Source of the DNA: Parelaphostrongylus tenuis
Taxonomy: Eukaryota; Nematoda; Chromadorea; Rhabditida; Metastrongylidae
Length of the DNA stretch: 64,000 nucleotides
Assembly: GCA_019055375.1 (NCBI GenBank)
Contig: JAHQIW010000296.1
Coordinates: 124,001 to 188,000, forward strand
Direction: 5' to 3'
Shown: positions 2,400-48,000 of the stretch, piece by piece
How the letters are laid out: every line of letters starts with the position of its first letter
Position numbering within the stretch: position 1 is the stretch's first letter
Made by a program: the position numbers and the translations under genes
Notes under the pieces: model-generated
Databases searched by the model: none
Told to the model about the DNA's origin: nothing
What the model saw: only the letters and a program-made list of their open reading frames with translations

Positions 2400-5300
2400 A
2401 TGGCTATATCCGTCAGCGATCGTACCGTTACGTCGAGTACTGTATGCGAAAATAGTGCTACAAATTCGGCGGCACCTTGTGATAGTGAATTCGAATTCAC
2501 GCTTTCGGCTTATGAAGAAAGTGAGGTAAGAATTCGGTTTGTTTTTAAACACCTACCGTCCTTATTTGGAGAAGGAGGATGAGGGGGGGGGGGGGGGGGT
2601 GGCATGGCCGAGTGGCTAGTGATGCTCGACGCTGGGTCAGTCCCCATTCCTTCATCCTCCCACTCGTGCAGTCAATAACGAACGCCCAACTCGGCTATCT
2701 TTGACATTGCAAAGAGGTATGCTTAAATAGTATTCTACGACGTCATGAAGAAAGCTAGTCCTCAATAAATCAATCGACACGAAGAAGGCGAATGGAATGC
2801 TAAAAGTACTGGGATTTGCACTGTGAGAAAAACCATATTACAAGTCAAATCAAGGGGAACAGAAAGTTCCATAAAATGCCCTTGTCGTGGTGTAGAATCT
2901 TTTGAATGAATACCCTTGTTTTGTTGAACATTTTGAAGAGCTAAAGCGGCTATTTGACGAAATAAACTCATATGCGATTTGCTTCGCTATGCTATCCAAG
3001 TCCCCATGTCTTAGGGTTTGTATTTCTAACTGTTTACATTTGCAGACTTCCTCAAACCTTGGAGACAATGACGGAGGTGATTCGTTATCACAGACTGAAA
3101 TTAAGTTATCGCCTTTCGACCGTCCACTATCCAAAAAAGATATTTGGAAAGGTTTATTGTTTTCTAGCTGTTTCTCTAACTTGTGAATATGTGGTATTGA
3201 TCTATTAAATGTCATATACAATGAGATAGCACAATGGAATACCGCCTAATTCAGCTATGAGGTCACAGCTAACGTCAGAAGAGTTTGAGACATTCAAGAA
3301 TGTTTTACGAAGTGAACCAAGCAGGGATTTGGACGAAAACGACGCTGAGCAAGCGGCAGAGGTGACGGAAAGAGAACAGGAACGGGTGAAAACCGACGAC
3401 AATCGGGAGTCACAGAGTTGGCTGAGTCTCATCTATGATGTACCACCACTCCAGTCCTTTTCAGTGGGTGGTTACTGGAACGACAAACGTTATCTTAGAC
3501 AGAGGTGGGTATACTTCAAGTCTATAGGAATTTATGCTTCGAAAAAACATCAACTTTCCCTTGAACTGCTCGATAATTTCTGTTCCATGTATGGACCTTT
3601 TAGAAGAGAATTCATATTTATTGTCAGAAAGATGAGTCGAGAGATGAGTATAACAAGTGGCACCGAATCCATTTTGGATAAAGGAAATATTGTGTTGGCC
3701 ATGATTCGTGATATTGGTGTTGTTCCGCCTAAAGGAAGAGAATATTCAAGCCACGGTTAGCTCGTTCAAAGTTTGATTATTACTTCGGAACAGCATACTT
3801 CTTCACTCTTGTTCTTTCTTACCACAATTTCCTTTTTATTTCCGATTTTCGAAAATTTTATTGCTTGTTAAGTTTTTGATGTACAACTTTCTTAAGCGCC
3901 CTATCATACATAAATTTTTAGTTCTAAGCAATACGTACTGAGCCCATACACTATTCAAAAACGTAACAGTTATGAGGTCCAAAAATTTCAGATTCCTCAT
4001 TGCGAAAAACGTTATCGCAACTTGATTTGCCAAATATGACTTGTGGTGGATGTGAAACATCTTCCAGTGAGGAGAGTATAAGCGCAGAACGACTTCGCCA
4101 GGTAATCAATTTGTTTTCGTGTCGGAGATAATCAGGCTTTTTGAGTTTGAGGCCAACATCTCTTACCTCATGATTAACCTTGTCAAATTGAATAGAAAGC
4201 ACTAAGAATATATACAGGGAAGGAGTGGCTAACCAAGTTTGACATGAGTTTGATCCCACCCCAACTCTCTTTGGCAATCAATGACGAACGCCTTATGGAA
4301 TTCCCCGAATGCCCTAGTCTGGATATCCCTGAGATGGTGGGGAGATGTGCTTAACACTGTGACGCCCATCGTTAATAGAGGGGCGTCGCGCCGTCGCGTT
4401 CACGGCACCCGCTTGCGGGGGCATCTACGTCATTCTGCGAAAATGTCGTTGTGTCTGCGCGCGCTCTCTTGCAGCAGTTGCCTTCTCCGCCGTCTCGGTA
4501 GGTTATTGAGACCGTGGGAAATTTGAGAGTCACAACAAAGGCAGAGGAGAGTACGCGGTATGGACAACCACTTACTAGGAAGTTGTCACTATCACTACCA
4601 CTAGCACCATCACTAGCATTACCGCTTTCACTATCATTACCACTGTCACTATCATTCCTGATTTTCTTCTCTAAGCCAAATACGAGTTGTTAAACTTTAT
4701 TTGACAACCGGATTGGATTCCAGACAATTTGACCTTTCCAGACTCTGAAGAAGGCGAACTGCCGAAACGTCAGCTGTCAAATAAAGTTTGATGTAACCCC
4801 TCGTGTTTGGCTTAAAGAAGAAAATCAGGAATTATATTGAAGCATGCCGAGGTTAATGGAGAGTTGGTATTGGGAACTGTCGCTATCATTATCACTACCA
4901 CCATCATTATCACTGTCACCATTATCACTATCATCGTTATTACTAATCACTATCACTATCGTCATTATCACTGCTACCATTATCACTAACACAGTGGAAT
5001 TTTTTTTCTGGAGAATGAAATCCTTCTCAAGTAGAGCTCACGGAGCGTTCATTCCCGTTTTCTTAATTTTTTTTTTCTCTTTAAAAGTTGAGTGTTGTTA
5101 GGAGAACCGATAGTTCTTCAGAATGAATCAGTGATCTTGGAGCGACTACCACCATGCTTTCGCCTTTTTAGATCTTTGGACTATTATATATACATCTAGT
5201 TTTGACTTCACCCGTATTTAGATTTCTTGTTGCAAGAATTATTTGAGGTCTAACTGATATGTACATCCAAGGCAAAATTTAGAACAAAACGTAAATATTA

Positions 5301-7837
5301 TTGCATCGTTAACTCAGTCCGGCCCGTACATCTTTTAATGGAGCTGAATACGGCGTGTTTATGGCATAATCTATTCAAACAGTTGACGTTTCGGCGGTTT
5401 CGCCTTTCTCAGAGCTTGGAAAGGTCAGATTGTCCACAACTCACTCGACCAAACACTCATATTACTGCCTAAGAAAAAAATCATCAAACGATTTATACTG
5501 ATCATGAAGGAATAATGAAAATTCGACTTTGTACTTCGGAAAAAATTTTCATGGGATTGTTAGTAATCATTCGAAAGGTGAGACAGGCTGCAGCCCACAT
5601 GGCGGATTTTGCAAAACATTTGCTCTTTTTGACTATTAGTAGTCATTCGATAGCGTAATCGTTTCTAATTCCAACGCTGTGTTTTATCCTGAAAAGACCA
5701 AAACAGCGTTTCTCTAAAATGCATCGGATAAAATATATTGCATCCCCATCTGCAGCCAAAGTGGACTGTGGTCAATTAGCGTGCTGCTGTCTGAGGCAGC
5801 CACGTGACCGGTGCAAGGTCTATTGGATGCCTCAGCCAGCCGCACGTGAACTGGCCGAATTGGCCCTTGATCGCAGATGGAGGTTCAACCTATTTTATCT
5901 GCTGCATTTCAGAAAAACGGTCTTTTCAGAATATAATTACAGCGTTGGAATCAAATTCGATTACGGAACTGTTACGATTACGGGATTATTACTGAAAGCC
6001 CAAAGAAGGAGCTCTGTTCGGCGAGAAGTATGCGTGTCTGAAGCCAAGAAATGTCCTCCTATAGCAGCGTCAGAAGAGTCTTTGTCGAAACCCGCGACGT
6101 GGCGTTGTAGCCTGATGTCTCAGCTTTCGAATGGTTCCCCAATACTCTCATGAAAAGCTCTAGGAAATGAGATCGTTTTTGATTTGTACTCTCTTAATCA
6201 GAAAGAACATATTTGAAATATCTGAAATTCTGAGATGCATCTGCTGGCGTATTTCAAGCGTTCGACGGGGATTGGAGGGAGTTCGCTCTCTCCAACAAGT
6301 CGGGTAATAATCGGCCTTGAAGGAAAGAGGTTTGGTGCTCCCGAAACTGTGATACCAGGTTGAGTTGTCCGCGTAATGAAAGGGGTCATTTGCACAGCTC
6401 CGCCAGCTCCCCTATTTTCTTCATCTAAATCACATAATTCTCAGTAACTGTTTTTAGAGTTTTTTCCCTTTCCTACTAATATTTTTTTTTCTGCAACCGT
6501 TGTGAGTTTCATATTTCTCCAACATTAATATGTGGGAAGGATCTCTGACCTTTTTTCCAGGATGCTTTACTTGTTGCTTCGCAACAGCTTGAGTCCGAAT
6601 CTGACATAGTTACTGCAGTTTCGACAGATACAGCAATGCGCTCATCGAATGAAATACATGATGGGGTTTCCGCCTTACAACCTGCGACATCTTCACAAGT
6701 TAGGTAGGTGAAATATTCTGGATTTTTTTGTCAGATGAGACTGTCGGTAATGAACATATTGCTAAGGCTTCCAGTAAAGTGTGTCGTCTTTTGGACATTT
6801 TTGGAGTTTTGAATTAATGTTGGGAAAAATCTGTGGAATTATTACGCTTGTACATAGTTGCGTTTTATTCTCTGAAAATACAGTGTCTACGTAGTCATAA
6901 ATGAACAAAGGCCATTTGGACTGACAGAGTCCCTCATAATTTAGCGAGTCGTACTGAACAGTGTTGCTCATAATTTTCTCGGTAATCATGAATCCAATGT
7001 GCAGATGGAATTTGGTTTTTTTTAGTGATGGCGAATCTTCTGAAGATGATGACGTATCGGAACAATCAGTTCGTCCAGACGAGGTTGAATTTCTCGCAAA
7101 TGATGCTGGACCACGTGCATGAAATTTCTCGCACTTGTTGAAGCTTCATGTGGTATGAATTTCTCTAGCTTGACAATGAATTTTTATCCTACGTGGTGCC
7201 TATTACTTGGGTTTGATGTCATGGATATGCGCATTTGGAATTTGGGTCATACACAATGTGTTCTAGTCATATATCTCACAGCTCTCCTTGTTTTCGGTGT
7301 CTAAGGAAAATCTCACTGCTCAATGTAACGCTGTATATCTTTGTTGTCTACTCTATTTACACATGCTTGCACGCATTCCATTATATAATGGTAAAGATTT
7401 TCCAGAATTTGTTAAATGTTATTCCTCTGTTAGTATTTTGAACATATTTTGAATATAATTTTGGCTTGGGCCTTGGAATACTGCTTAAAATTTGGTACTG
7501 CCGTGCCGTCACGAGTCCTGCATGTACTTTTTCTTTTTGCGAGTTTCTTATGCCGAATAGACTTTTTCCCGTTGAACCTATCGTAACGGGTCGATGTTTT
7601 TATTTATGTAGATATTCTATCAGGCATTAGTTATGAAACTTTTTTTTTCAATGCCTAATTTACAAAAACCATTTTTCAGACGACTTTGCTCGTTTCGTTT
7701 CCCGCGGCGGGAGAATGTTGATGTTGAAGAAGGGTACTAAGATATCTCCAGGGGCGAGATTAGCACAGATGAAGAGCGTGCGACGTCTCAAACACAAGTA
7801 CATGAGTCATTATATCCCTCAATTATTGACAGAGTAA
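2400..7837 (+). CDS. Acidic, Ser-rich protein of unknown function (7 exons)
   Basis: Proposed exons: 2400-2525, 3046-3151, 3255-3504, 4068-4101, 6561-6703, 7026-7114 and 7680-7837. All junctions agree in phase and give 301 residues. The start MAISVSDRTVTSSTV leads into Ser/Glu-rich sequence. Exon 3 has a polar stretch (ESQSWLSLIYDVPPL). Exons 5-6 are strongly acidic (SDGESSEDDDVSEQ). The last exon is basic (RMLMLKKGTKISPG, then KSVRRLKHKYM). Exon 6 needs a weak donor (CCAC|GTGCAT); if it is not used, the protein ends at a TGA at 7120-7122. Exon 3 may instead read on to 3760. Much of the protein looks disordered. I do not recognise the family; a nuclear or scaffold role would be a guess. The 2.5 kb intron 4 holds a foldback with a hammerhead-like core. 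Confidence 0.55.
2583..2599 (+). repeat. Poly(G) run
   Basis: About 17 consecutive G in intron 1, directly before a tRNA-like repeat head. The exact length is likely to vary and is prone to sequencing error. Confidence 0.8.
2601..2833 (+). mobile_element. SINE-like element, family B (tRNA-Ser/Leu-like head)
   Basis: The 5' end reads GGCATGGCCGAGTGGCTAGT, which looks like the D-arm region (box A) of a tRNA-Ser or tRNA-Leu. The 3' part shares with the copy at 56022-56252 the blocks GTATTCTACGACGT, GAATGCTA and a GCACTGTGA-like end. Other copies are at 58323-58563 (-) and, in part, 4222-4335 (+). Confidence 0.6.
4222..4335 (+). mobile_element. SINE family B fragment
   Basis: Shares a stretch with family B: CCCAACTCTCT, then a GGCAATCAATGACGAACGCC-like block and CTTATGGAA, as in the copies at 2601 and 56022. 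Ends are eroded. Confidence 0.4.
4360..4560. other. GC-rich island in intron 4
   Basis: Locally GC-rich (GGGGCGTCGCGCC, GCGCGCGCTCTC). Similar GC-rich blocks lie at about 130-180, 40300-40370, 43790-44000 and 45235-45300, some sharing GCGGCACGCGGCG-like and TACAATGAYAAYGTTGTGG-like words, so this may be an old dispersed repeat. Confidence 0.3.
4570..4653 (+). repeat. Degenerate (CACTAT)n-like microsatellite
   Basis: Runs of TCACTATCAC, ACCACTAGC and CACTGTCACTATC units. The ORF here is low-complexity and is not a gene. A matching tract lies at 4873-4995 on the far side of the foldback. Confidence 0.8.
4654..4832. mobile_element. Small foldback with a hammerhead-like centre
   Basis: Arms 4654-4706 and 4775-4832 are near-perfect inverted repeats: CTGATTTTCTTC, TAAGCCAAA and ACTTTATTTGACA on the left are mirrored on the right. 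The loop between them holds the hammerhead-like core at 4745-4774. Microsatellite tracts flank both sides. Confidence 0.75.
4741..4774 (+). ncRNA. Hammerhead-like core, minimal stem III
   Basis: GACT, core CTGAAGA, then A-GGC-GAACT-GCC, GAAA, CGTC and AGC. It matches the CUGANGA / stem II / GAAA order but has one extra A after the core and only the palindrome ACGT for stem III. The copy at 5380 shows that stem I may once have been AGCT/AGCT. Probably inactive alone. Confidence 0.4.
4873..4995 (+). repeat. Degenerate (CACTAT)n-like microsatellite
   Basis: Second tract of ATCACTATC, ACCATTATC and similar units, paired with 4570-4653 around the foldback. Confidence 0.8.
5380..5419 (-). ncRNA. 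Hammerhead-like core, same family as 4741
   Basis: On the - strand: CCAAGCT, CTGAGAA (core damaged), A-GGCG-AAAC-CGCC, GAAA, CGTC and AACTG. Stem II is a clean 4 bp. The upstream sequence GACCTTTCCA is shared with the copy at 4741, so the two are homologous and in opposite orientation. Confidence 0.35.
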
Positions 7838-10399: not shown

Positions 10400-13300
10400 A
10401 AAGGCCTGCTCCGTGCGCTTCACCTATATCACCTGTCGTCCCGCTGATCGTCGAGTGACTAGAGCGGGTACCAGCAACACTTCCATTTTTCCCTATCGCG
10501 TGCAAGAGTAGCCCAGTGTGTCCTCCTCGCCCTAGGGATTCGCTGAACATCATATTTTTCTTCTATACCTTTCGTGAAGAAATCGGACCAACGGGTCCGT
10601 GGTCTTCCTGTAGAGCGCTTGGTGTCCCGAGGAGTCCAGTCAGTAACGGCTCTCGTCCATCGGTTGTCGTTGAAGCGCATTACGTGTCCGGCCCACCTTA
10701 TTTTTGATATCCTGGAGTGTAGAATGGCGTCTCTGATTTTCCATCATTGACGTAGGTCGGGACTTCGGATCATTTCTCTCATTTGCGAGATGCGGGATAC
10801 TCCTAGCATCGACCTTTCAAACGCGCGTTCAATAGCGCCAAGTGATCTTTCATCCTGCTTACGTAGCGACCAGATTTCTGCTGCATACTTGAGGGCAGGA
10901 ATAATTGTCGAGTCGAAAAAGTGGGCACGGAGTCGTTGTTCTTTGTCCTCTTCACTACATCTTCGATGCTCTTAAACGTTCCCCAAGCCGCTCGTTTCCT
11001 TCTGCTCAACTTTGGAGCTATGTCGTTCATCATGTTGATTTCACGACCTAAATAGACGCAACTGGAGCATTCGGAGATTGTCGTTCCGTTGACCGTGAAT
11101 GGGGCATTCAAAACTCATCCGTTCCTCATGAACATTGTTTTCGTTAGATTCAGTTGAAGACCAATCTTTCCACAGGCGTTATCGAAATCGGTCAACATTC
11201 GTTCCGCTTGGCTGATGCTTGGTGTTATGAGAACTATATCGTCAGCAAAGCGAAGATGATTTAATTGCAGATCGTCAATTTTCACTCCCATATCGTCCCA
11301 TTCTAATGTTCGCATGACGTTTGTAGGGTGGCAGCTAATAGTTTTGGTGGAATTGTGTCTCCTTGTCGAACCCCTCTTCTTACGTCAATGGTGATATTGT
11401 TGTAGAATAGAGATATTTTGGTCGTGAAATCTTTACACACCTCACGAAGGATCATTATGTACCGAATATGGACGCCCTGGTTATCCAGAGCCTCTATAAC
11501 TGCTTCTGCTTCCACTTAATCAAAGGCTTTTTTCAGATCGTGAAAGTGAGACAAAGTGGTTGTTTGTACTCTCGTGAAACTTCAATGAGTCTTGTGATCG
11601 TGTGGGATGTGGTCTATGGTACTAAATCCTTCTCGGAATCATGCTTGTTCGCATGGCTGTCCTTCGTCCCTTGTTCTGTCAATCCTGTTCAGGATGACTC
11701 AAGTGAAGAGTTTATAGACAACGGACAGCAGGCAGATTGGGCTATAATTGCCCATGTCGTGAAGGTCTCCCGTCTTGAACACCACTACGGTCTTGCTGGT
11801 TTTCAATTGAATGGGAACGTTGCTTTGACAGGTAGCGAGTGAAGAGCCGAGCCAGGTGTTGATGAGATTTGGCGAAAGGTTCTTCAGGTGTTCTGTCTGA
11901 TCCTGCCTGGACCGGATGTTGTTCTGTTCTTCACCCACGATATAGCATGTCGGATTTCGGAAAGGAGGACCGATAGAACGACATATTCATCTTCTTCCAA
12001 TTTATATGACGGTAAGAGGACATGGCTAACGAAGAGATCCGAGTAGTATTGGTGGATGATTTTTCCATAGTCTTTCTGAAGCTGTAAGTGCCCCGTCAAG
12101 GCATGGGAGTGAAATCATCTTGGCCTTATAATTGGCGAAGCTTTCGCTGGGCTTTGCGAATGCTCTTCCCAGCTTTTCCATAACTGCTGCTCGTCTCTCT
12201 TTGAGGTCTTCTCTTATTGCTTCTCTGCAGCGTTCCGCAAGTTCGGACGTAAGGTTTCGGTTGCCTGTAGCTCGTGCGATTCAACGTTGGAGTATCAGCT
12301 CGAGTGTCTGCGGAGACAAGCGTCTCTTCGTGACCTTAGGACTCTCGGCTTTCATAGCGCTAACGTGAAGATATTCAACGAGCCAATCATATTCTTCGTC
12401 GATGTTGTCGACAATGGTATCTTCCCAAGAGCCGACTAATGATTTGAATACATCCCAGTTTATGGTAGTTCTGGGACTTCGTTGTTTGAATTTAGCGGCT
12501 TTCTCTCTCCGCGAAACACGGAACGTTGCGCAAAGGCGGCGATTGTCTGATCCCGTGTAGAACTTAGGAACAACAGCGACATCGGTCAGGCAACACTTTT
12601 GATTTACTAAGAATGGGTCTATTTCGTTAGGGTACTCTCCATTGGGAGACTCCCACGTCCGTCGTTGAGAGTGAGGCTTTTGGATTGTTTAGTTACCATG
12701 GATGGTTTGGGTCGTCATGATAAACTCAGATAGCTTCTCGCTCTGTTCATTCCATTCTAGTCCGTGGTTTCCAATGTAGCGCTCTTCAGACGTTCTTCCA
12801 GGTTTAATTTTTCCATAAAATCTTCGATCCAACATGACCTTGAAGAATGTAAGATCTTCTCTGAAGAATTTTTTGAAGTTTATATAGAACGCTTCAACTT
12901 CGTCTTCGTCATAGCTTGATGTTGGTGCGTAGGCAACGAATATGGTCAAAGCCGGTATTGAGCCACATCGTTTCGACCGCAATCGTCCGATGCGGGTTGT
13001 GAGTTGTTCAAACGAATCGATGTTCACGGTCAAATTCAATTTGACAAGGACGCCAATGCCGCCGACACCTCTGCTGTCGTAGTATGTTCCACGGAACAGT
13101 TCTTCTCCGGTGTCATAAACAGCGTGAAGAGGATGGCGCCTTCTCGTCTCAGCCAGGCCAATGACGTCGTACCTTATTCCCCTTGCTTGAATCAGTAGAT
13201 CTTCTACAACGGATTCGTGAGCAAGGGTTCTTGCATTGTAGGTACAGATCGTCATTTTAGTTCGTTTCGATCTCGGCAGCCTAATTTGGCCCTGAGATTT

Positions 13301-13757
13301 CAGCAGCCTCTCCGTACTCGCCTTACCTGGCGTTGCCGTACCAGGGGCTCTTTCGGGGTCAGGGGAATTAAGCCCATATTTGTTACAGTTTTTGGCATTT
13401 TGATACCCAACGCATAGCTTGCCAGGCTCTAAAAGTGGGGGCTGGGTACTCACGAGTAGCTTGCCAGTCTCTCTCGGAGGAGCGGGAGGAAATTATTGGA
13501 GGCTATTCCTAACCGCCTCCCATGTACTTCCCGGCCGCTTGATTGCAGGGTTTTGACCAACTTGACTCGTAGAAATAGAGTTTGTCAAGTCGGCGCTGGA
13601 GAAGCAGGGAGCTCATCTCCTGAATCCACCTGCATCACTGAGAAGCACACGGTCGCCTTTAGTTCGCGTTTATTCCTCTGTCCACCACCTGGGGACGCGC
13701 CATGTGCCCTCGCAACTAACAGGGCGAGATCCCTCAAAGAGGGAGATCCCTGGTAGT
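10400..13757 (-). mobile_element. RTE-type non-LTR retrotransposon, near full length, inactivated
   Basis: Reads on the - strand. The 5' leader lies near 13757-13460. The APE-type endonuclease is at 13453-12689, with TICTYNART, DVIGLAETRRRH, GVGGIGVLV and YAPTSS segments. A TAA after IHGN interrupts it, and the frame then resumes (RTWESP...NEIDPF). The reverse transcriptase follows in pieces: NYSPICLLSVVYKLF (near 11700-11760), GVRQGDTI (near 11370), and LRFADDIVLITPSISQAE with the FADD active site (near 11210-11260). The C-terminus has GRPRTRWSDFF (near 10590) and ends at 10459. Several frameshifts and stops show it is dead. The layout and wording are those of the RTE family common in hookworm genomes. 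The 3' boundary near 10400 is approximate. Confidence 0.9.
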
Positions 13758-14740
13758 GCGCAATAGCGGCGAAAAATATTATTGAGTCTCAAATTCGGAA
13801 CACATTATAGAGAATATTTTGATATTTATTTGAAAATTTTTTCTCCATTTTGCAGAATTTTCAGGCTTTTTGCATTATAATTGTATAAATAACTTTATTC
13901 TATTGTTCCAATGGCTTGGGTTTTTCTTTTCATTCTAAATTGACAAAATAAATGTGGTGCTAAGCCTAAGCAACCTAAGCCAAGAAGTACAAAGTGTAAT
14001 CTTCTATTCGCTCTTACAGCGCCGTATAAAGACTATCTCAAAAATAAAACAGCTTCAAGATCACCTAAAGCTCTCTATTAAATTATTTCCAGCCTATCAA
14101 AACACTTCCCTGAACCCTGCCCACCTTGATGCCGTTTGTTTCAAATGTTGCAAAATCCCATTCATACCGCCATTTACACTCTGGCCGAGCAAAAACTGCG
14201 CGCCGAGTGTGAGACACAGTTTTATTTCCGCTGCCACACTGCAGTAATATTAAAATAGCCGAGATTTGAGCTATGGAATGATTTTTGAAAATCTAGGGAA
14301 AGTGCTGTCCAGAGAAAAACGCGAATGTGGAACCTAATTCTATTTTCCTTTCTACAGTGCACAAAAAGGACCCTTATAGGAATCAAGCATAATTTTTGAA
14401 TTACCGAATTTTGATTCATCAAACCATCTCTATAGTATAGGGAAATAACAATAAAGGCTTTGTCCTTGAGAGGTCTAAAAATCGATTGCCCCCACTAAAC
14501 TTGGACCGAAAAGGTTGCCACGTTGCCCTATGAGAATTATTCTTAGTAGTGAATATCTAGAGTGTGTTCATACAATCAGACACACGTGGGCGCAGACCGG
14601 AAAAGCCACATTGGACACTATCAACGATCAATTCGGCCGTGAGCATTAAGTGCGACCAATACGATAACACATTCAACGCATAAAAAAGGTTTCGAAAAAT
14701 TGCCCATTGATAAAATTCACAAGATTTCTTCAATTTCAGC
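13758..14740. other. Intergenic, nothing recognised
   Basis: AT-rich spacer between the LINE and the family 2 foldback. Short ORFs at 13954-14247 (+) and 14222-14422 (-) have no supporting motif. Confidence 0.35.
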
Positions 14741-14796
14741 ATGCCTGGCAATTATTTTTTGAGCCATGCATGTGGCCAGTTATGGGCACTTGTACA

Positions 14797-14840
14797 GCCC
14801 AATACACTTGTTTGGGCCTTGGCAGCCTCCTCAGTTGGGC
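14797..14840 (-). ncRNA. Hammerhead ribozyme motif, type I, left arm of foldback 2
   Basis: On the - strand: GCCCAA, core CTGAGGA, stem II GGCTGCCAAGGCC, CAAA where GAAA is expected, CAAGTG, cleavage dinucleotide TA, then TTGGGC. Stem I is a perfect 6 bp. The single core change is G12 to C. Confidence 0.65.
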
Positions 14841-15070
14841 ATGCCCTTCGCCTTTCCCCGATACTCTCGGACGAACACAACTCCTACATAGAGAAGGCGT
14901 AGACGAACTATTTGCATGTGCCATAAAATGAAAATATCACTAAATGCCCTTGTACAACAAAGCCCATTTAGTGATATTTTCACTTAATGGTAGGTGTAAA
15001 AAATACGTCTGCGCCTTCTCTATGTGGAGCTTTGGGTTCCGCCGTGGCAATGGCTAAAGACCAAGGGCGT

Positions 15071-15114
15071 GTCCAACTGACGAGGCTGCCAAGGCCGAAA
15101 CACGTGCATTGGGC
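15071..15114 (+). ncRNA. Hammerhead ribozyme motif, type I, right arm of foldback 2
   Basis: GTCCAA, core CTGACGA, stem II GGCTGCCAAGGCC, GAAA, palindrome CACGTG, CA, then TTGGGC. Stem I is 6 bp with one wobble. The only defect is C in place of U16.1. Combined with the left-arm copy, the family consensus would be a complete hammerhead. Confidence 0.7.
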
Positions 15115-15507
15115 CATACAAGTGTACATAGCATGCCACATGCATGGCTCAAAGAAATAATCATCAGGCATTTTGAGACTTAAGCGTGGCGCATAAGGAA
15201 GCACTTTAAACCGAAAGTATTTCTTGAATTGTTGCACTTGTCTTGCATTTCATCACCAGCCTATAATTTCATCATTTGCTAACGCAGATGGTTTTGTAAA
15301 TGATAAATGTTTCCGCTGTATGAATACCTAGTAGCATACTTATTTGGGTGTCCATGATGTTTTATCGGTTATAAATTATCAATTTTATAACTTCATTGGG
15401 AATATTCGGGTTTTCTTTGACCCGAGAGAGTTAAAGAGGCGCTAATATAGGATTATACAAAGTCTGTTACAATCTCGTAATAAAATTTACTATGAAGCGA
15501 AGTGATC

Positions 15508-18070
15508 CTAGCATCGGACCTGCAATAGGGTGAAGAGTTTGTCAGATGGTACGTGGTCGTTGAGGAAACGTCTCCATCGTTCGTTGTGACGTAGTTGGAT
15601 TAGTTCGAAATCAATTGACGCCAGTTGCATACATGTGACACTCTTCTTCAATTCTGAACCGAGTTCAATGAATCGAATCTGTAAAGAGTCCTATTCGATT
15701 ATCACTGACGGTCCGAATCATACGAATCCTCGAATACAACCTGAATAAATGATTTGTTCCACGACAATCTGGATTTGTAATAACGGCATTCAAAGATTTA
15801 CTTAGTACTGAAACATAACGCCCGGAGGTGGTTAGTCAACGTCTGACAATGATTTCTCGACTATTAAACTATTCATGGAAGTACAGACTACGCACAGGTA
15901 GAAGGAGTTTTGCTCTACTATGCCTTTCGATATGACTGATTTACAGTGCTCGTTTAAATTCAAATATGTTTAAAAGTGGAACTTAAAAAAAAACTGAAAT
16001 CTAACCAAATCAAAGAAAATGGACGATTTACAATTCTTAAATATTATCAGCGATGCTGAAGCTATGAACATAGAGATTTATGGAGTGACGCTATTATGTC
16101 CTACTGGACGAACGTCTGCATGTTTAACTGTTTTTTTTTATCTAAAATACAAGCTTTGGTTCGAGAAAATAGTAAGAAAAATTCCGGAGAGCCAGAATTT
16201 TGTTGTTGTGTGATGGACAAACATATTTTGTAGACAAAGTTTTGCACTTTCTATTTTCTCACTAAAGTCAATGAAACCCAGCATGAGCTGCGATACGTTC
16301 GTATTGGGTTTAAAGACGGGTATTATACTTGAATCAAGCAATGCATACAATACTCTCGAGCGATAGTTCCTAATTACGTTCATCAATAGAGACAAATTCA
16401 ACCATGTTTTATTTAATTCACCGCTACGAGGAGTCCAGAAAAACTGAAAAGTTTAGCAATATATAATTATTTTGATTAAAAATAATACGTTTCATTTCCC
16501 AATCGATTTTAACGGCTTACTTCAATCTTAAGTCGATTAGCATTCACTTCTTCGAGCTCCTTCGTCCAGACGGCCACTTGACGAATCACGCTGGCTATCT
16601 CGGCTTCGAGTGCTTCGAGTTCCTCCGGTGAATCTAAGGCATCATAATGATTTCTGAGGGACAGGAACACTGCAAATTCTTATTAAGAAATTCCTAACAT
16701 GTTTTGATGTACTACTGTCTACATAGGCTGGGTATTACACATGGCAACTGGTCTGAAAGAATCTCACTCGCAAAGCAACGAATCGTTCGCAAATTTACAA
16801 GTGTGGTTTCTGGTGAAGACTTGAACGCACGGTCGTTTATCAGATGATTCGGGGAAGATCAAGACCATATGGCATTCAGTTCTAAGCCGTCAATCATTAA
16901 CAATGATGATAACGAGACAACGAAACAAACAGAAGTATGACACCCTGGGTTATCCAAGTGTTTTGCTGAGTAGTCCGAGTGCTGATTTAGTCTTCCTCAA
17001 CTCTTATGAAGGTGAAAGGTCAGCAAGTTTCATATACACCTGCTATCAACAACCTTGTTCTAAGCAAGAAAAAAATTGACTCAAATGAAAAAGAAGGAAT
17101 AAAATTATGATGAGTCACCAGGACTCTCATTTCCATCAATCTCATATGATTTTACAACCTAGTTTAGCCCAGAGAGGAATAATTTTCAAATGATGTGATG
17201 CTCAACTGAAATAGGAAGTTAGGCCCACACATCATTCTACTACTTCTATAGAACACAATGGGTCGCGGCATTGGATAAGACAATCATGAAAGAACGCTCA
17301 TCATCATAGAACAGAGATAGGTTCTCAATTTCTGCTAATATTTGAAATATCCACTCATCAGGGAACAAATAAGTTGGATCGAGGTTCTGATAACTAAACC
17401 AGTTTGGATCACGAAATTTTCTATTGCATGAAGTTTCAAAGCGAAATAATTTTTTATGATAACTTGCCATGAAATACAAGTTGACAGAATTAAAGCGATA
17501 ATCAATAAGTGCGTTTTGAGCCTTTCTTACTCTCTAATAATGTGAGACAAGCACTCTTTTTATGACTTTATTGTTGAAAATATGGTTATAATAAAAATCA
17601 AGGTGTTGGAGGACCTACAGGAACTTTAAAGAGAATATCTAGTTAATGAAAGTGATAATTGCAGAGCATCCACAGTCAGTTCATTTGTGCTTAATCTGTA
17701 CATTTTTCCACATGTTTTATGAGAAGATGTCGATGTTGATAAATTATCCATAAAAAAATAAAAAATAATAAATGTTGATAAATTAAATTTTTCTCCAGCA
17801 CAGGATTCTGTATAGCGCAAAAGCTGAATTTATCCGTATCCATAGATCTTTTGAATTGGGTTTATTGATGGATGTGAAATGCGCGCAAGAAACAATTGAA
17901 CGGAAAAAGTTAACTGGATGGGGTTTGAAGCTGCTGAAATCAATAAGAAGTTGCACATGTTAAGCATATATATATATATATATATATATTTAGGTGTCCT
18001 TTTATGCAGATCCATAGTGGTCATCCCGTTTCGTCAATGTATTCTTCATCAAATGTCGTGCAGGAGATAT

Positions 18071-18121
<51 letters not shown>

Positions 18122-18808
18122 CAAAAGATCGGGTCACTGACGAGGAGGACGTACCTCCGAAACACCGGTGTATGACCCTGGCGTAACAACCTCGTTTTTG
18201 AGCTTAAATCATTCTTTTCTGGAATTATATTGAATGTTTTTGCGGGGTTTCAAAAACAGTCGATATTTTGATTCAGTTTTGATCTAACAGCAAAAAATCC
18301 ATCGACTGAGGGGTGGTGATGGACCAGTGTCATTGTACACTGTTCCATCACCACATACGCCTCCCTCCTTGCTTCAATGCAGGGCTGAATGTGGGGCGGG
18401 GGTCACTGACGAGGAGGACGTACCTCCGAAACACCGGTGTATGACCCTGGCGTAACAACCTCGTTTTTGAGCTTAAATCATTCTTTTCTGGAATTATATA
18501 TATATATATATATATGCTTTATTTACTTTATTTGATCCGTTGTCACAATGCTTCTTTTCCTTGTGTGGATCCAGTACTTCTAGCATTCAATTCGTTTTTT
18601 GTCTTCTTCTAGAACGTCGTAGTATACTGGTTGAGCGAGTCTCCTTGCAATCTCGAGAGTAGCCTTGCTGCGGTGTTCCATAGAGAGAAGAGGAAATGGA
18701 GCTCGTCTCTACGCGCTCCGTGACCTTCATCACATCCACTGGGCCACTGCGCCCCATATATACGCGTATATATATATATGCATATATATGTATATATATA
18801 TATATATA

Positions 18809-18854
<46 letters not shown>

Positions 18855-21800
18855 TTCTTTAAATATAGACGGGAAAGCCAACAGCCATGCAAGTAAGCTT
18901 TTAGAAGCGCACATGGTAGGAAAACATAACGCTATGGACTTTAATGTGGTAGTAAGATTCTTGGGAGACAATCATAAGCATCAGCGCGTAAAACTCTCGT
19001 AGCCTTTTGCGTTTAACCGCAAAAATCCAAAAATGAATTGGGAGAGTGCTATGGCACCTTATCTCACAGTCATTTTCTAGTCTGAGTATGGTTCATTTTT
19101 ACAGTGTATCACATAAAACCGGTGACCTCTCCCATATAAGTGTAAATGAGGTGCGGATATTTAAAGTGGCCAGACTATTGGAGTGTTTTATACAGGATTA
19201 TTTATTCATACAAGATTTATCTGAGTAATCAGATATGGTATCAATGTATTTCGTCTAGACTCTAACGAAGGCGGCGTGGCCGAAACGTTCGACAGAATCT
19301 GAAGAATTTTCGATTAATCTCAAATCACAAGACAAGAATACGCAATCACTAAAAGACATTGATCCATCTTATCCTAAATGCATAATTGTCAGATACCTCG
19401 ACCCTTTAGCATTTCACACTATGGACTACTCTTATGCGTTGAAATATAAGCTAACGGGAAAGTCTTTTTTTTCTGGTGAATGTAATAGGGATCATAATCC
19501 CGAAACTTTAGCATATCCTTTGAATTATTTCGTGAGAAGAAGTAAAAGCTGAAATGTCTTGATTGTAATAGGTTGGGGAAAAAGTTCTGAGTAAATGCTT
19601 GTAAAACATTTCTTTATGCACCCATCACACCCAAACAAAGACAAAACTAATAGTCAAATTACTCCCATCAAACTCCAAGCACTTCTTGCCACTTCTCCGG
19701 CAAAAGATCGATTCCGCGAGCATAAAATTCCGATTTCTTGCTGTCAAAAAATTTTCTTCAATAGCTCGATGCACAGCTTGACGACCAACTTCTTTTGGAC
19801 GACCTGAACGCGGCTGATCATCCAAACTCTCTTCACGTTCGTCAAACTTTTTGAAGCACCTGTGCATCACACTTTTGCCAACTGTGTCTTCACCCCAGGC
19901 CAGATTGACGCGTTCACTTGCCACCGTTGCATTTGAATCCAACACCCACTCGTACATCATCAACGACCTGATTTGCTCATTTGTTAACTCCATTTTGGAA
20001 TGAGTAGATATATTATATATCAATCGACGCAGGAGAAGACGGGCTTTCAGATGAGCCCAAAAACACAAAAAATGGCCCGACGCTTAAAAAGTTACAAGCA
20101 TTTTCTCAGAGCTTTTTCCTCAACTTATTATCTATCTTGATTCACTCACAGTCTTTCAACAGGTCTACAAAAAATAGAAGCATGACGACTTTGGTGGAAT
20201 ACGGGAAATTAATAGAAAAGATAGAGCCGGTAATTTGTTTAGCTTTTGCTTGCATGAGAGCTGTTGTCTGAATTTAGGTCAACTAGGCAGTGCAAGGTAA
20301 TTAAGACTACGGAAAGTGGAAATACTGACTCTTGTTGGCGAAGCGTGATACGATCAAGGATAGTGTTCCAACACTAATCGTTAGGTAAGAAACTGAACAT
20401 GTCAGGATGTCATTAGAATAAGAGGCATCCAGGTTATATTACGTTGAGTCTGAGACTATATGTTAGCGTTATTCTCTGCTAGAGATCTTTTACGACACAC
20501 GATTTTTCACCAGTCATTTGAAGAGCGAACATGACTAGAAGATGTGACCGCAGTCCCTAGGGTTGAACAGGAAATTCTGGGAATTTTTGAAGTTTCGTTT
20601 TGACGTGAAAGTTTGCAGCAAAAACAACAACAACTAACCTAGTAGTTCTGCAGATTGGAAAAGGCGCGTAATTACTAGGAATGACGTTGACAATAGTTAA
20701 AGCTAGCGTGTGATTTTAGTGCCGCTTGAATAATTGAGTTCTCTTTAAAAATTTAATTAATTAAAGACTCAACTTGTCTTTTAAAGTCTTGTTGAACGTC
20801 GAAAGTAGATTTATTTAGAGTTTGGAAAACGCTCATTGTCGCTCTATGAAAGTGCTGGCGGTTTAACGTAATTAGTATGGAATAAAAAGCTGGTAAGCCA
20901 TGGACGTAAATATCACAAGAGCTCTAAAAGACTTTACATTTACAATTCTGCCTATGAAAATGATTCAGGTGTAATTGAGACCCCTTAAATCACAAATTGA
21001 TGAAGCTCAGAAATTTCCATGAGCGAATGCTAAGCTTCATTTCAAAAAAGTAGGCTCACGAGGTTTTTCATCGATAGTCCTCCTGATCCGAGCGTGACGC
21101 TCCCTGAGTGTCTGAGCAGTTTCGGAGAGTATCTCCAGTTGGGCGTCGTTCATCTGAAGGCTGAGGCTGCAATCGGCGTACTGCCGACAGAGGTCGGCAT
21201 GCCGTTCGCAAGTCGTCTTGATTTCCTTCAACTCCTCCCTATCATCATGCCTCTAAATAACCGACAGTTCAATTCAGCCCTTGGTTTTTGCAAAAACGAA
21301 AAAGAACATAAAAAAAATTGTTCATGAGAAACGGGGTTCTAAGTGGATATTCATAAGAATTTTTACATTCATAGGTGTCGTTTATATTTAGCCCAAATCA
21401 AAGTCTCAGGTCTTTTTCCTCCATTACACCTTTAAGTGTCCGTGATTTTATTCCCAAAGTTCTCCAAAATCGTTCATTTACAAACTTTGCGCCGGATAAT
21501 ACACTTGATAGGATGACTAAAGGCTCACATTTGTCGTCCTGAGCATCGCTGATGACAGTGAATTGAGTATTATCTATTGGTGATTGAGCAATGAATCAGC
21601 TAAGTGAAATTGTCTGAAATATATTGTGTATAAGGATTTGTAACAGTAAATTCTATGAAAATGGAACGCCTCCAAGGGGAAACAAAACTGTGAAATTGAG
21701 TTAGGAGACTTGAGAGGACACATAATTTATAATGGACTTTAACTTCATCGGGCTGTGCTGATACGTCTCGTTAAGGTCGAAACCTGTGAGTTAACGAATT

Positions 21801-25599: not shown

Positions 25600-25754
25600 C
25601 TAAAATGAAATTTCCGAGATAAATTGAAATTAGTGGTGTCAAAACTGAACATTTGTTCAAGATTGAAATCATCACTGTATAATAATAAGTGCCCTCAATC
25701 AGAAAACTAATTCCCGGCTACTGAGGAGATATAGAGTGATATACTGTGCGATAT

Positions 25755-26060
25755 GAGCGCATGTGGCGCAGTGGTTAGAGGTGCCCTGCGTTGCTCACGA
25801 GGTCACTGATTCGATCTCGCGCTCATGGCTCACCAAGCCATCCATCCCTCCGGGGTCGGTAAATTGGTACCAGACAGGTCTCAGACTTGTCTGGGAGGAT
25901 AAGCAGCACTGACTCGGTTCAGCGGGAGGCCACCGCGAGTCATTGTAATGGCCAGATGTGCATTCAATCACCACAAACGAAGTTAAAAATTGAAGTCGAA
26001 TGCATGGCGCACCCCCCAGGGATTGATCAACGCAGAGAGCTTTATCCTTTTTATCCTTTT
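25755..26060 (+). mobile_element. SINE family A (tRNA-derived) with a 14-bp target duplication
   Basis: The head holds box A (TGGCGCAGTGGTTAGAGG) and a box B-like GATTCGATCTCGCGC of a tRNA. The body has CCGGGGTCGGTAAATTGG-like and CACCGCGAGTCA blocks, and the tail is TTTATCC repeats. The sequence ATACTGTGCGATAT occurs just before (25741-25754) and just after (26061-26074), a clear target-site duplication. Other copies: 38686 (+), 51450, 58908, 61306 and 62822 (all -). Confidence 0.9.
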
Positions 26061-30601: not shown

Positions 30602-33600
30602 TAAAATGATTCGGGGACACATAGATATCTCTCTGCAATCGAGATCTCCCTTTAGTCGTAAGTCACTGGCTGATGGTACCCACTGCGGTTAAATTATGAA
30701 AACAAAGCTTTTAGCATTCACCAGTCGCTTGAAAATGAGTCATGTTAATCGACTTTGAATGGGTAACAGTGGTCGGAATGCATATTTAGCCTGTACTGGA
30801 CTGTGGTCTTCTAGCCAAATGAATGATCTTCTTTAGAGAAGTATGGTATCAATCTGGAAGTTACAAAAGCTCAGTTCTCCGTAGTGAGAGATGAATCGAC
30901 GAAGTTTTATTTTAGGGCACTTCTAATCCGTGCATCACACGCGACATGTTGAGGTTTGTAGGTGATTAGCGACATTATATGTACTAATGGCTTTATATGA
31001 ACTGTTAAGTTGAAGTCAAAAGTGAGCCCTGTAACTTGCTACTGAATGGGCAGGGAACATCACCACAGTTCGTCATAAAAAAAGCACCGCGTGCTTCAAT
31101 TAATCTTATAAAGGACAATTGCATCCTGAACTGCCTTCATGCTTCTCTAGTTCTAATAAAGCGAAAAACTAAATACAGAGTGGAAATTAGTGAGCTGAAA
31201 GTGTTCAGATGATTATCCGGAGAAAACTTGAATAAATTGACTATCAATTTTGAAACTACTGTGTCCTCCAGAAAAAAGTGCTTTCGAATTTTATCCCTTC
31301 TTATACTTTGTCACCTTCTTCTGAACGAAGATTTCTGCTTTTGGAGCGTTGCCTCTACTCTATATTTTTTCTCATTCGCCATTTAGGTCAATGAATGAAA
31401 ATGGGAAGCAAAGATATTCCAACACACTTTATCTGAGGGATACAAAACATGAGCATAAGCCTTCCAGAAGCGGCTTGTACGGTGAAAATTTCATCGCATT
31501 TGACTAGAAAACAGCTGTCTATAGTACCGTAAAAACACTAATGTCAAAATAAGCCAGACTTAAGCCGAAGTGAAATAAGCTCTACTGAGCCGGATGTCCG
31601 GACAAGCAAAGGAATACTGCAAAAAAAAAGCGAGAAGATCGTTATCGTAAAAAGACTCCTTTTGCGTGACGGAAGATTTAATTTCTCAGTCGACTTCTGC
31701 TGTCATGCTAAAAATATATTTTACACTTCAGTCAACCATGTTTACTAAAAGATGGATATGGAAGAAGTAGCGAAATACTTCACAAAGCCATGCTTGTAAA
31801 AGCTCACTATGAGCAGTTCAGCATCATCATTACGGCGGAGAATTATCGTCATAATATCGAGAATAAAACACATTAAAATTTGTAAGGCCCACAAATGCAA
31901 ACGGTGATGAAAAGCGTAGGCTTAAAGTCATCGAACAGCAAACATTTAGCTTCACCTGCTAGTATGACCAGCACAGAAAAGCACATTACAATCACCGAAT
32001 CGATGACATCTATGCAAATGCAGCGCATGCATCCAGGCGTGGTGCATCCAACAGATGAGATCCAATATTGTCGATTACGGCAATGCTCAAGCAAACTTCG
32101 ATATTTGCCGCTCAAAAAGTTGAATAACGTGAAAGAAGAAGTCGAGCCTCTTCTAACGCAACTCACGGTCCTTTCATCAACTAATTTGCATTTTTTATGC
32201 TCCTACGCAACTATTCTCTTCAAGCAGTCTCCAGCAGCAGACCAAATGTGTAGCAATGCTTTTTTCAAGATCCGGAACTCTAGAAGGCAAGACTCATGCC
32301 TGGATAAAAAATCACTTACAAGTTGGAGAGAATCTATATACTCTAATAGCTTCTATTTTGATTAGAGAGTTTAATCTGCGCTGCCTTATGCTCATTTTCA
32401 GATGAAGACTGGAAGTGGAATAAACTATAACTTATTCAACTCATATAAACACTTCACATTTGATATCATCCCTTACATTAATCGAATGTAATCTTTCCTA
32501 CAATCCTGAAGCGAAGTACCTCGAAATTTTTTGAAGCAGAGGAAAAAACTGTCGAATTAACGAAAGCCGAGCTCTTTTAAGGTGGTTTTGTAATCGTTGC
32601 TGGCTGCGCAATTCGAGAGGCGCACAAAACCGGTTAATTATACATTTTTTTCTCCGTTTCGGAAGGATTTTTAGATCCATTTTATTGCTCTGATATAACA
32701 CGATTTTCACTAGACGTTCATACGGTTTTTGTGCGCATATCTCCAAGTGCGACATGTACATTTTTTGATTTCTAAAGGTCTTTTCGGAACCAAATTTATT
32801 CCTCTGCTATCAAATTTATTTTCGAATTCCCATTTTCATGCTATCGAATAATAGCTAAAACTCTGCTGAAAATTATCCACAGTCCCTACGAACAGATTTT
32901 CCGCAGAGTAGCTGAAACGTAATGTTATCTCTGCCGCTACAACACCATAGAAAAGCGCTTTGGAATCCAAATGCAGCATTGAAATGGCCACGATTTGAGC
33001 TATCGCTTAATTCCCTTAGAGATTTTGAGAACTCTTTTGTTTTCACATCGACCATAAAGTCAGTGATGTCAGTGATATTGTCAATTTCATCGCATCAATT
33101 TTATCCATCTTTGAGTTGTATAGTTACAATTTGACTTCTTTTGAGGTACATGAATGCATATTTGGCCTTCACAATTACTTTTTTATCCTTTATAGTTACA
33201 AATCAGAGCGCTTACAGTACAGTGGTTAAGAAGTACCTCGTGTACTCACCACATCAATAATCCTATTCTTTATCTCGAGCCCGTCGAACCTCCCATATCC
33301 CTTGTACACTTTATGATATTAGATAGATTTGCCTGCAGAAAGTTCCATGCCATACCAAAAGGCTAACGGCTACATGTAGCGACGAGCCAGGAGTGTTCTG
33401 CCACCACTGCCTAGCTATTCTATTATCATTCATTCTTATTATTATTGCTATTATCATTATTTGATACCAGTCATTATTATCTATGAATGTCATCAACGGT
33501 TAGTCGAGTCAAATTCCCATGAAATTCGTAAGGGGTTACGATATTTCCCTAAGACTGCTGCCGGCTGTTGTAGACTGGAGGCAGTGTGGTGATCTAGAAA

Positions 33601-34188: not shown

Positions 34189-34449
34189 GGTACTCTTTTT
34201 CCTCAAAATTTGATGGCTAACGTTTTTCATATGCATGAAGAATCCAATTGAAAAATTCTATAGTTTTCCATAAAAATCTATCTCTATCTAGAATTCTGTA
34301 GAATTTTCAATTGGATCCTTGATGCATAGGAAATATGACCCGAGTAATCAGATATGGTGTAATATATACGTCTAAGGCTCTGACGAAGGCGTTGCCGCCG
34401 AAACGTTAGCCATCAAATTTTGAGGAAAAAGAAATACCAACTTCGTGCA
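34189..34449. mobile_element. Foldback element with a hammerhead-like core in one arm
   Basis: Left arm 34189-34260 is mirrored by 34299-34327 plus 34403-34449: GGTTGGTA, CCTCAAAATTTGATGGCTAA and TCCAATTGAAAA all recur inverted. The right arm has about 75 bp more, and that extra piece contains the hammerhead-like core. Confidence 0.7.
34376..34411 (+). ncRNA. Hammerhead-like motif with loopless stem III
   Basis: GGCT, core CTGACGA, A, stem II GGCG-TTGC-CGCC (perfect), GAAA, CG, TT, then AGCC closing a 4-bp stem I. Differences from the consensus are one extra A after the core and a stem III that is only the palindrome ACGT. It could act only as a dimer, if at all. Confidence 0.45.
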
Positions 34450-45000: not shown

Positions 45001-48000
45001 CTTCGAAGACAAGCCTCGTTCAGTGCTGCTTTGAGGGATGAACCGTCGTCAAAAGCTTGCTAACCAGATTCGACCAGATCCGAAACTTGGCGGACCGATG
45101 ACCGATTGCCGTTGAACACGATGGTCTTTATTTTGAAAATAGTTGTTATTGTTCTTGTTTAAAATTCATGCATAAGTTTTCAATTCTTTACAAGTGCCTT
45201 AGAACTTTATTTCCAACCGGTTTTCCAACACAGATTTTTTGGGCCACGCGCCAATAAACCTGGCGGACACGCGGCGCGTGCCGGAAGTGCGCCGAAAACG
45301 ATGCATTTCATCCCAAACGTGTCTTAAAAGGGCCACTGGATTTCCCGATGAGGTAGCACAACAAAGGCCGTAAAACGCTGTTGCACTTCCAAATGTATTC
45401 AAATAACAGGAATAGTTCCCATTGTCCCATTGTCTAGATTTTTAGTGACTTACGAAGAACTCTGCATACCTGGATAGTACATAGAGTGGAAAACTACAGC
45501 GGCACCAGTTCGGTACAGTTTGTACAAGTCGGCTTTGTTCTTTGGAAATCTGAAGAGTTTCAAACGATGGTAAATTGATGGTGGATATCCACGGTGGTTC
45601 AATTAATTGGAGAAAGGATATTTGGAACAAAACGGCTGAAAAATGATTTATACCTCATTCGCTTTGGCTTCTTCAATTTTTGTTGGAAAGAATCAAAAGT
45701 TCTCTTCAGAATTTCGTCAACTTGTTCTTTAACCCTTCTTTTCTTTCCTCTACAAATATTTCTTTCCTCGTCTACTCTCAAAATCGTTCCTTAGAAAACT
45801 CACTCGTTAACTCGTTCATCAACCTCGAAAATTCTGTAGACAAGCATTGTTTGTGGTTTCTCGGTCAGACGGCTGTGAGCCACTGCTCGCACAGTTTTTT
45901 TCAAAACCTAAAGAAAAAATGTTGGCTATCACATTCTTCATATCCACTTCGTTTATACTGCCATCAAGCTGATTCTTTCCGATATAATATTTTTCTCGAA
46001 AATCAAAACATTGTGCTATCGAGTGCAGTTTTTCCCAGCTGGCTTCAGTACCGATTTGACATTTCCAAATCGTTCTCTTTAATAAGTGATGGCTCATGGC
46101 AATAATATAGTGGAAACATGGCTAAGACAACGGCATAGTTTCACGAGTTAGTGTGTTAGTTACCACGTGAGCTTGGGAACGAGTTGTCGAAAGTTTGAAG
46201 TTCAACTGAGGTTTTATTTCGCTTATGCCAAAGCACGCTTGTGATCGTATTTCAAAATACTTTTTTGAAGAAACAAAAGCACGACTTCTGTTGTCCAAGA
46301 TTACCACACTGTTGTTGATTTCAATCGGTTGAGGTCACTTAACCTGAACCTAATCTGATACGTTTCGGTTACTTCCGTCTATTTCTTTTCCTCGGCTTTT
46401 CAGTGAGAAGAAAAACTTTTCACAATAGGAATGGGTTGTCGGGAAGGAACCGTATCCCTCGTAGCTATTTTCACTTGGATGACTTAGGTAGATGTCTAAA
46501 TAAGTGAGAAGCCAAAGTTTCTTTTCACCACTCACCAGCCTCAAAAAGTTGAAAAACATCTCTAGTATATTTTATAAGAATGGGTCCCTGATCCTAGAAG
46601 TCAAAATACTTTCTATATATATCTTTCTACTTTCTACTGTATATACTTTCTATATAGCCCAATACGATAAGCTTATCTGGAAGGCACTGACAAATAGACA
46701 GAACCACACACTAACCTTTACTGAAGAAGTGTTCGTAGTCGGTAATCACTATATATTTCGAGGCAGAAAACTGTAAACAATATTAATTAAATCTATGATG
46801 CGGATAAACCTCATTATTTTTCCTTTCCAAGTTAAATAAATCTAAGTTCTGTAAGCCTATGGAGTTAAATCATGTCACTTCATCGCAGTTATCCACGCTT
46901 GATTTCACTGCCTACCCAAGTTTGAACGTTTCAGATGATACTAGAGATGATGTATTTTGTCATCAGAAGCCACCGCTTCCTCTAAATTTACATTGAACAA
47001 TGTAGACTGTTCCTTCGTAGCTTCTTTGCTATCGTTACAGTTTCCGCATATATATAACAACATGATGTGAATTCTTCTACAACAAGAAAAAATGACAGTC
47101 AGCTTTGTTGGTGGAATAATGCATTCATTTAGAAAAGAACTGCGTATGTCAAACTCGATTCCTCCGCTCAAAAGTCAAAGGAGTGAAACCATCAACTGAT
47201 AGCCCTAATATCGTTGTTCCACTGGGAAGGCAAAGAACCTGAAGCAGAAGAGGACTTGACTGACTAAACGGATCTGATGGTGAAAGTTCATAACAATGAG
47301 GGGTACTAATCGTACAATATATAGACGCTTTTAGTCGTACATATTTCAGAATGCTCATAGTTCTATAAAACTTGTAACACACTATGCGAGCGATATTTCT
47401 TGCAGTATTGACAGGATAGAGAGCGACTTGCTCGACGCTGGCCTTCTGATGCTTTTCACATACAGAAGCGAACGACAACGATGGCAGAACGAGGGAAGCA
47501 GAACAATTTGTCGTCCACGTCTTCGGGAACACCAAATGGGCTCGAAGATGTTGCTCTACCTCAGTGGACAATCGACGAATCTTCTTCAGCTGAAAAATAA
47601 AATATTTTTGAAAAACATTTGCATTACCAACTTTCAGTCATAACTTGATTATGCCTTAGTTCTGCTCTTTTCCCAAGTTATGGAACGGAGCCGTTGATCT
47701 CCTGGATCTGAATTACTCCAAACTGCGTTCGATCATGAAGAATGGCATGTGGCAAGTAGTGCAAAATGTTAACATCATGGAGCAAAAATTTTTGAGACTA
47801 TACTTTGTCTACCACGGATATGTTGAGAAGTTGTATGAGTTTCGCCCATTATTTCGAGATCGGAAAGAGTAATTTGCTAAATTTGCTGTGTCCTGCATAT
47901 CGGAAGACACCTTGTTCACTTCCTTTGTTTTTTTCTTCACGACATGAGTTCCTAGTTTAGTTGTCTTTGTTTCTTCAGCGGTAAAGAATATAGCCCAACT

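What the first reader, a model, noticed from the sequence alone, without database searches (positions are those of the whole stretch)
18131..18499. Retrozyme-like tandem element with two intact hammerhead ribozymes
Two identical type I hammerheads lie exactly 269 bp apart in the same orientation. Core, stem I (6 bp) and stem II (5 bp) are perfect in both, and the cleavage dinucleotide is UA. The unit between the cuts has no ORF and a strong internal hairpin. Small hammerhead-bounded retroelements that make circular RNAs are known in plants and some animals. I infer this is such an element in a hookworm-like nematode, within an intron that is transcribed in the opposite direction.
Basis: partly seen in the sequence, partly recalled or inferred. 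Interest (0 to 1): 0.92.

Follow-up and report, generated by a model that had tools for sequence, protein, structure and literature searches.

The report
Ribozyme-flanked mobile element from a roundworm
A 269-base unit lies between two identical copies of the hammerhead self-cutting RNA motif in DNA that is likely from a parasitic roundworm; it is likely a tiny mobile element predicted to spread through RNA circles, a kind known from other animals.

Summary
An exact 100-bp direct repeat (18131-18230, 18400-18499; offset 269) carries two perfect type I hammerhead cores with 6-bp stem I and 5-bp stem II; a strict scanner makes 1 such hit in 3,000 shuffled windows. Rfam has no hit at gathering score; a permissive search of 62 bases puts a hammerhead model on the core at a sub-threshold 13.7 bits. 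Stem III is a 10-nt palindrome, and the predicted fold of the 369-nt transcript is a double hammerhead, 14.4 kcal/mol better than two separate ones. Size, GC, lack of ORF and stable fold match the metazoan non-LTR retrozymes of PMC7229834. The element is 1.37 units long between TA tracts, as expected if a circular RNA was reverse-transcribed at an AT-rich nick; that step is inferred. A nearby retroelement points to a strongylid nematode. Copy number, cleavage and circles are untested: the genome search did not complete (14 calls). Likely a new member of a known kind; I found no nematode retrozyme in the main texts and listings searched.

The parts
18131..18178 (+). hammerhead copy 1 (type I): stem I 18131-18136/18173-18178, stem II 18144-18148/18154-18158, stem III palindrome 18162-18171, predicted cut after A18172
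18400..18447 (+). hammerhead copy 2, identical; predicted cut after A18441; here stem I can be extended by one G-U pair
18131..18230 (+). left direct repeat, 100 bp, 100% identical to the right one
18400..18499 (+). right direct repeat, 100 bp; its end TTATAT merges into a TA tract
18173..18441 (+). 269-nt unit between the two predicted cuts; 46% GC; no ORF of 70 aa or more inside; fold z-score -3.99 (0 of 200 shuffles fold as well)
18313..18354 (+). internal hairpin of the unit (folded as 18310-18357: -28.7 kcal/mol)
18073..18118 (.). left flanking perfect TA tract, 46 bp, ending 12 bp before the element
18119..18130 (.). 12-bp stretch between TA tract and element; 11 of 12 bases match the reverse complement of the unit (29 of 12,666 sampled window 12-mers match the unit as well)
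18495..18515 (.). right flanking TA tract, overlapping the end of the right repeat

Best explanation
This is likely a non-autonomous retrozyme: a 269-base non-coding unit bounded by two identical type I hammerhead motifs whose transcript is predicted to fold into a double hammerhead, would cut itself at both ends and would be closed into an RNA circle that a reverse transcriptase would then copy into new sites. Shown by sequence: the exact repeat, intact cores and stems, the palindromic stem III, the TA tracts on both sides, the 1.37-unit length. Predicted by folding: in the tandem transcript the two copies share a 10-bp stem III and swap stem I strands, which puts both cut sites in complete junctions; in the monomer circle stem III has only 3 bp and is rarely formed, so the circle would be cut more slowly than the dimer. 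Inferred: read-through transcription (no Pol III B box was found; Pol II promoters were not tested), ligation by a host RNA ligase, and reverse transcription primed at an AT-rich nick by pairing to the UUAUAU of the unit, running once round the circle plus 100 nt. The helper enzyme is most likely a Penelope-like element elsewhere in the genome, with the endonuclease-bearing non-LTR element of the window as second candidate; neither was tested.
For: Exact 100-bp repeat at offset 269; perfect cores, strict scanner 2 real hits against 1 hit in 3,000 shuffled windows. MFE of 18131-18499 is the double hammerhead, -129.5 kcal/mol; inter-copy stem III 0.92-1.0 in four contexts of 369 to 901 nt, stem I pairs 0.53-1.0; two forced single hammerheads -115.1. 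In the circle, stem III probability 0.01-0.02. Published metazoan retrozymes: type I hammerheads, repeats 150-450 bp, RNAs about 170-400 nt, GC below 50%, no LTR, dimer cleavage when helix III is weak; newt and viroid hammerheads that work as tandem dimers. A Penelope-like endonuclease prefers AT-rich DNA and its reverse transcriptase starts inside the RNA. Perfect TA tracts of 16 bp or more make up 290 of 64,000 bases, yet lie on both sides of the element.
Against: No copy number: the genome search did not answer in 14 tries. No Rfam hit at gathering score. No expression or cleavage data. No clean target-site duplication; 5 of the 11 TA tracts of the window lie within 17966-18852, so the neighbourhood is TA-rich anyway and the flanking tracts could be coincidence or slippage; the left one stops 12 bp short of the element. 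In PMC11167929 the RT start is not homologous to the cut DNA, unlike the pairing that I propose. The circle is 61% paired, below the 'above 70%' of PMC4918200. Forcing the single hammerhead in the circle costs only 2.0 kcal/mol, so a monomer lock is weakly supported. No Penelope-like protein was seen in the 17 ORFs scanned of 184 listed, nor in the short exon.
Confidence: 0.78

Rival explanations
1. Deletion derivative of an autonomous Penelope-like element: two hammerhead-bearing pseudo-LTRs left after loss of the coding part.
For: Penelope-like elements carry hammerheads and occur in tandem with pseudo-LTRs; minimal hammerhead-like motifs that I recall as typical of such elements occur at about four other places of the window.
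Against: The unit has no ORF of 70 aa and so no long RT or GIY-YIG remnant; each copy can form up to 5 bp of stem III, not the nearly absent helix III described for Penelope hammerheads; blastn finds no other copy of the element in the window.
Confidence: 0.08
2. Local tandem duplication or short satellite that happens to carry a hammerhead, without retrotransposition.
For: Only 1.37 units are present and the copies are identical, as in a recent duplication; no second locus is known.
Against: Satellite units of this make-up with hammerheads are what the retrozyme papers reinterpret as retroelements; a tract of TA on either side fits insertion better, though weakly.
Confidence: 0.1
3. Endogenised copy of a viroid-like RNA replicon that replicates RNA to RNA.
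For: Small, circle-sized, stable fold, self-cleaving motif.
Against: The strict scanner finds no hammerhead on the minus strand, so symmetric processing by hammerheads in both polarities is not supported; exact searches for the core found nothing in viral contigs, a weak negative.
Confidence: 0.03

Closest known systems
Metazoan non-LTR retrozymes (Cervera and de la Pena 2020, PMC7229834)
   Same: type I hammerheads in tandem a few hundred bp apart, unit size within 170-400, GC below 50%, non-coding, predicted stable fold
   Different: host phylum: 'nematod' has 0 occurrences in the main text and in the review PMC7761336; dimer-type cleavage is described there for amphibians, while most invertebrate ones cut as monomers; loop 1 - loop 2 contacts not recognised with confidence here; copy number and circles unknown here
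Newt satellite hammerhead and other dimer-acting hammerheads (PMC6155905, passages)
   Same: weak single-copy stem III that becomes long when two tandem copies pair
   Different: different host; sequences not compared; activity only predicted here
Penelope-like element hammerheads (PMC11167929, abstract and passages; Cervera and de la Pena 2014, known only from citations)
   Same: hammerhead in tandemly repeated retroelements; AT-rich target preference of the endonuclease
   Different: no coding region here; helix III present
Plant LTR retrozymes (PMC4918200, passages; PMC7761336, passages)
   Same: hammerhead-bounded non-coding element that makes circles
   Different: type III hammerheads, longer units, PBS and PPT, 4-bp target duplications

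Membership tests
metazoan non-LTR retrozyme | type I hammerhead with intact core | tested here: met
   but Rfam stays below gathering score
metazoan non-LTR retrozyme | hammerheads in tandem, 150-450 bp apart | tested here: met
   offset 269
metazoan non-LTR retrozyme | GC below 50% | tested here: met
   46%
metazoan non-LTR retrozyme | no coding sequence | tested here: met
   no stop-to-stop ORF of 70 aa or more inside the unit; shorter ones not examined
metazoan non-LTR retrozyme | no LTR, PBS or PPT | not tested
   no search for primer-binding site or polypurine tract was made
metazoan non-LTR retrozyme | stable, highly self-paired monomer RNA | tested here: inconclusive
   z -3.99, but 61% of the circle paired
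metazoan non-LTR retrozyme | target-site duplications longer than 4 bp, when present | tested here: inconclusive
   TA tracts on both sides hide any duplication
metazoan non-LTR retrozyme | multiple dispersed genomic copies | not testable with these tools
   one locus in the window; the genome search gave no answer in 14 tries
metazoan non-LTR retrozyme | self-cleavage and circular RNA in vivo | not testable with these tools
   needs bench work or RNA reads
metazoan non-LTR retrozyme | loop 1 - loop 2 tertiary contact | tested here: inconclusive
   by eye, loop II ACGU (18149-18152) could pair with GCGU (18181-18184); not modelled
Penelope-like element | RT and GIY-YIG coding region between pseudo-LTRs | tested here: not met
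   no ORF of 70 aa inside the unit

The most novel reading that the evidence does not exclude
A strongylid nematode lineage carries its own hammerhead retroelements: a retrozyme whose ribozyme is built to work only as a tandem double hammerhead, so that multimers are cut and monomer circles persist, and which uses TA microsatellites as landing and priming sites on the RNA circle; beside it, palindromic elements of the same window carry hammerhead-like motifs in both arms and thus in both polarities.
Probability: 0.25. Interest if true: 0.68.

Novelty: new member of a known kind. Interest (0 to 1): 0.52.

Why it matters
Retrozymes are reported in many animal phyla, but 'nematod' has 0 occurrences in the main texts of PMC7229834, PMC7761336 and PMC4918200; their supplementary species lists were not available to me. 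The one paper holding hammerhead, retrozyme and nematod together was seen in the listing only. A small copy with identical repeats and a clear double-hammerhead design, in a group that I recall as related to Caenorhabditis, would allow tests of how hammerhead circles form, persist and are reverse-transcribed.

Tried and rejected
Rfam as the deciding test: negative at gathering score and uninformative at E<=10 in 801 bases, where TA tracts dominate the 23 matches; I rest on motif plus repeat instead. A motif at 1301-1347 (score 14 in the relaxed scanner) was dropped because 5 of 100 shuffles reach 14. The loose pattern search gave 7 matches (two are the element's own) against 1.93 expected, 6 of 100 shuffles reaching 7, so the extra motifs are leads only. 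Pol III boxes: A-box-like matches only with two mismatches, no B box with up to two. Exact searches of prokaryote genome contigs and viral contigs found nothing, which says little about a worm element. Host gene: the exon candidate gave no Pfam family and only weak PDB matches. In one search the 12-mer control sampled every fifth position and left out 18060-18520 and TA-rich 12-mers.

Papers: PMC7229834 abstract, part 1 of 3 of the results, discussion and passages; PMC7761336, PMC4918200, PMC6155905 and PMC3088659 passages; PMC11167929 abstract and passages; all others in search listings only (one search listed none). One search listed 20 of 58 papers, 20 of 1,105, 5 of 6; I judged those by title and start of abstract. 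Three papers were not held, among them Cervera and de la Pena 2014. The look of Penelope hammerheads (GAAACGUC) is recalled.

Full report
What is there. Window 18131-18230 and 18400-18499 are identical over 100 of 100 bases, offset 269; among exact direct repeats of 25 bp or more with TA-rich words left out, it is the longest of the five listed. Each copy begins with the 5' strand of stem I and holds a complete type I hammerhead: CUGACGA, a 5-bp stem II with loop ACGUA, GAAA, then ACACCGGUGU overlapping the last A, then A, and the 3' strand of a 6-bp stem I. The predicted cuts follow A18172 and A18441 and would release 269 nt. A strict scanner finds these two and nothing else on either strand of the window; 0 hits in 200 shuffles, 1 in 3,000; with shorter stems allowed, 7 of 3,000 shuffles have a hit. 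A laxer scanner reaches the score of these copies in 1 of 100 shuffles.

Rfam. The window has no hit at gathering score and no hammerhead among 23 matches at E<=10 in the surrounding 801 bases. In a 62-base search the best family is RAGATH-1-hammerhead, aligned on the core without broken pairs, at 13.7 bits against a cut-off of 56.3 and E 2.3. I weigh it lightly, because stem III of this motif has no loop of its own and I recognise no loop 1 in stem I, but it is a result against.

The double hammerhead. ACACCGGUGU is its own reverse complement. Alone, a copy can make a 3-bp stem III with a CCGG loop; neither the MFE nor the centroid of the 48-mer does so. With two copies in one RNA, stem III can be 10 bp between copies. 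The MFE of 18131-18499 (-129.5 kcal/mol) is exactly this double hammerhead, with inter-copy stem III probabilities of 0.92-1.0 in four contexts of 369, 431, 601 and 901 nt; forcing two separate hammerheads gives -115.1. Dimer-acting hammerheads of this sort are described for newt and avocado sunblotch viroid (passages of PMC6155905). In the 269-nt circle stems I and II form (0.51-0.95) but stem III is at 0.01-0.02; forcing it costs 2.0 kcal/mol, so slow monomer cleavage is not excluded. These energies ignore the non-canonical core.

Insertion. The element is one unit plus 100 nt. On the right, the repeat ends in TTATAT and runs on into a TA tract; on the left lies a 46-bp TA tract, then 12 bp, then the element. 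Perfect TA tracts of 16 bp or more cover 290 of 64,000 bases, but 5 of the 11 tracts lie within 17966-18852, so the neighbourhood is TA-rich in any case. The 12 bp match the reverse complement of the unit at 11 of 12 bases; 29 of 12,666 sampled window 12-mers match it as well, a suggestive, after-the-fact figure. I infer that a nick in the TA tract primed on UUAUAU of a circular RNA, and that the copy went round 1.37 times. A Penelope-like element cuts AT-rich DNA and starts inside its RNA, though at a site not homologous to the cut (passages of PMC11167929), which differs from the pairing that I propose.

Host. A Mos1-type HTH lies at 19628-20083. The species is not identified. The exon candidate at 16524-16667 on the minus strand does not by itself prove that the element lies in an intron.

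Known or new. Features match the metazoan non-LTR retrozymes of PMC7229834; 'nematod' has 0 occurrences in the main texts of PMC7229834, PMC7761336, PMC4918200, PMC6155905 and PMC3088659. A search for hammerhead, retrozyme and nematod gave one paper, by its title on human ribozymes; wider searches listed none on point by title (one search lists 20 of 58). Subscription papers and supplementary species lists are not covered, and they could name nematodes. So: likely a new member of a known kind, in a phylum where I found none in print within that limit.

Other motifs. The window holds more hammerhead-like sequences, in a 457-bp palindrome (14728-15184), a 142-bp palindrome (53381-53522) and about four short repeats. 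They suggest a genome rich in such repeats, but none passes the strict scanner.

Noticed in passing
14728-15184: Imperfect 457-bp palindrome (arms 78% alike) with a hammerhead-like motif in each arm: 15071-15114 on + and 14797-14840 on -, each with at least one lesion (a C at position 16.1 on +, a C at G12 on -). In the predicted fold of the minus motif stem I continues past an internal loop.
   Followed up: partly
53381-53522: Shorter palindrome related to the one at 14728-15184 (76% over 82 bp), with a hammerhead-like motif at 53439-53469 on the minus strand whose stem I does not pair.
   Followed up: partly
4740-4782, 5379-5434, 19223-19289, 34342-34418: Four related repeats with a CTGA.GAAGGCG...GCCGAAACGT motif or a damaged form of it, resembling, from recall, the minimal hammerheads of Penelope-like elements.
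   Followed up: partly
12284-13492 and nearby minus-strand ORFs: Remains of an endonuclease-bearing non-LTR retroelement common in strongylid nematodes (ORF 12692-13492); the neighbouring ORFs gave no Pfam hit.
   Followed up: partly
19628-20083 (-): Fragment with the HTH domain of Mos1-type mariner transposases.
   Followed up: no
25751-26010 and about 12,930 bp downstream: A dispersed direct repeat with exact stretches of 31-50 bp.
   Followed up: no
47152-47637 (-); 31886-32362 (+): Sub-threshold Pfam matches to Glyco_transf_49 and to the N terminus of the intron-binding protein aquarius, possibly host exons.
   Followed up: no
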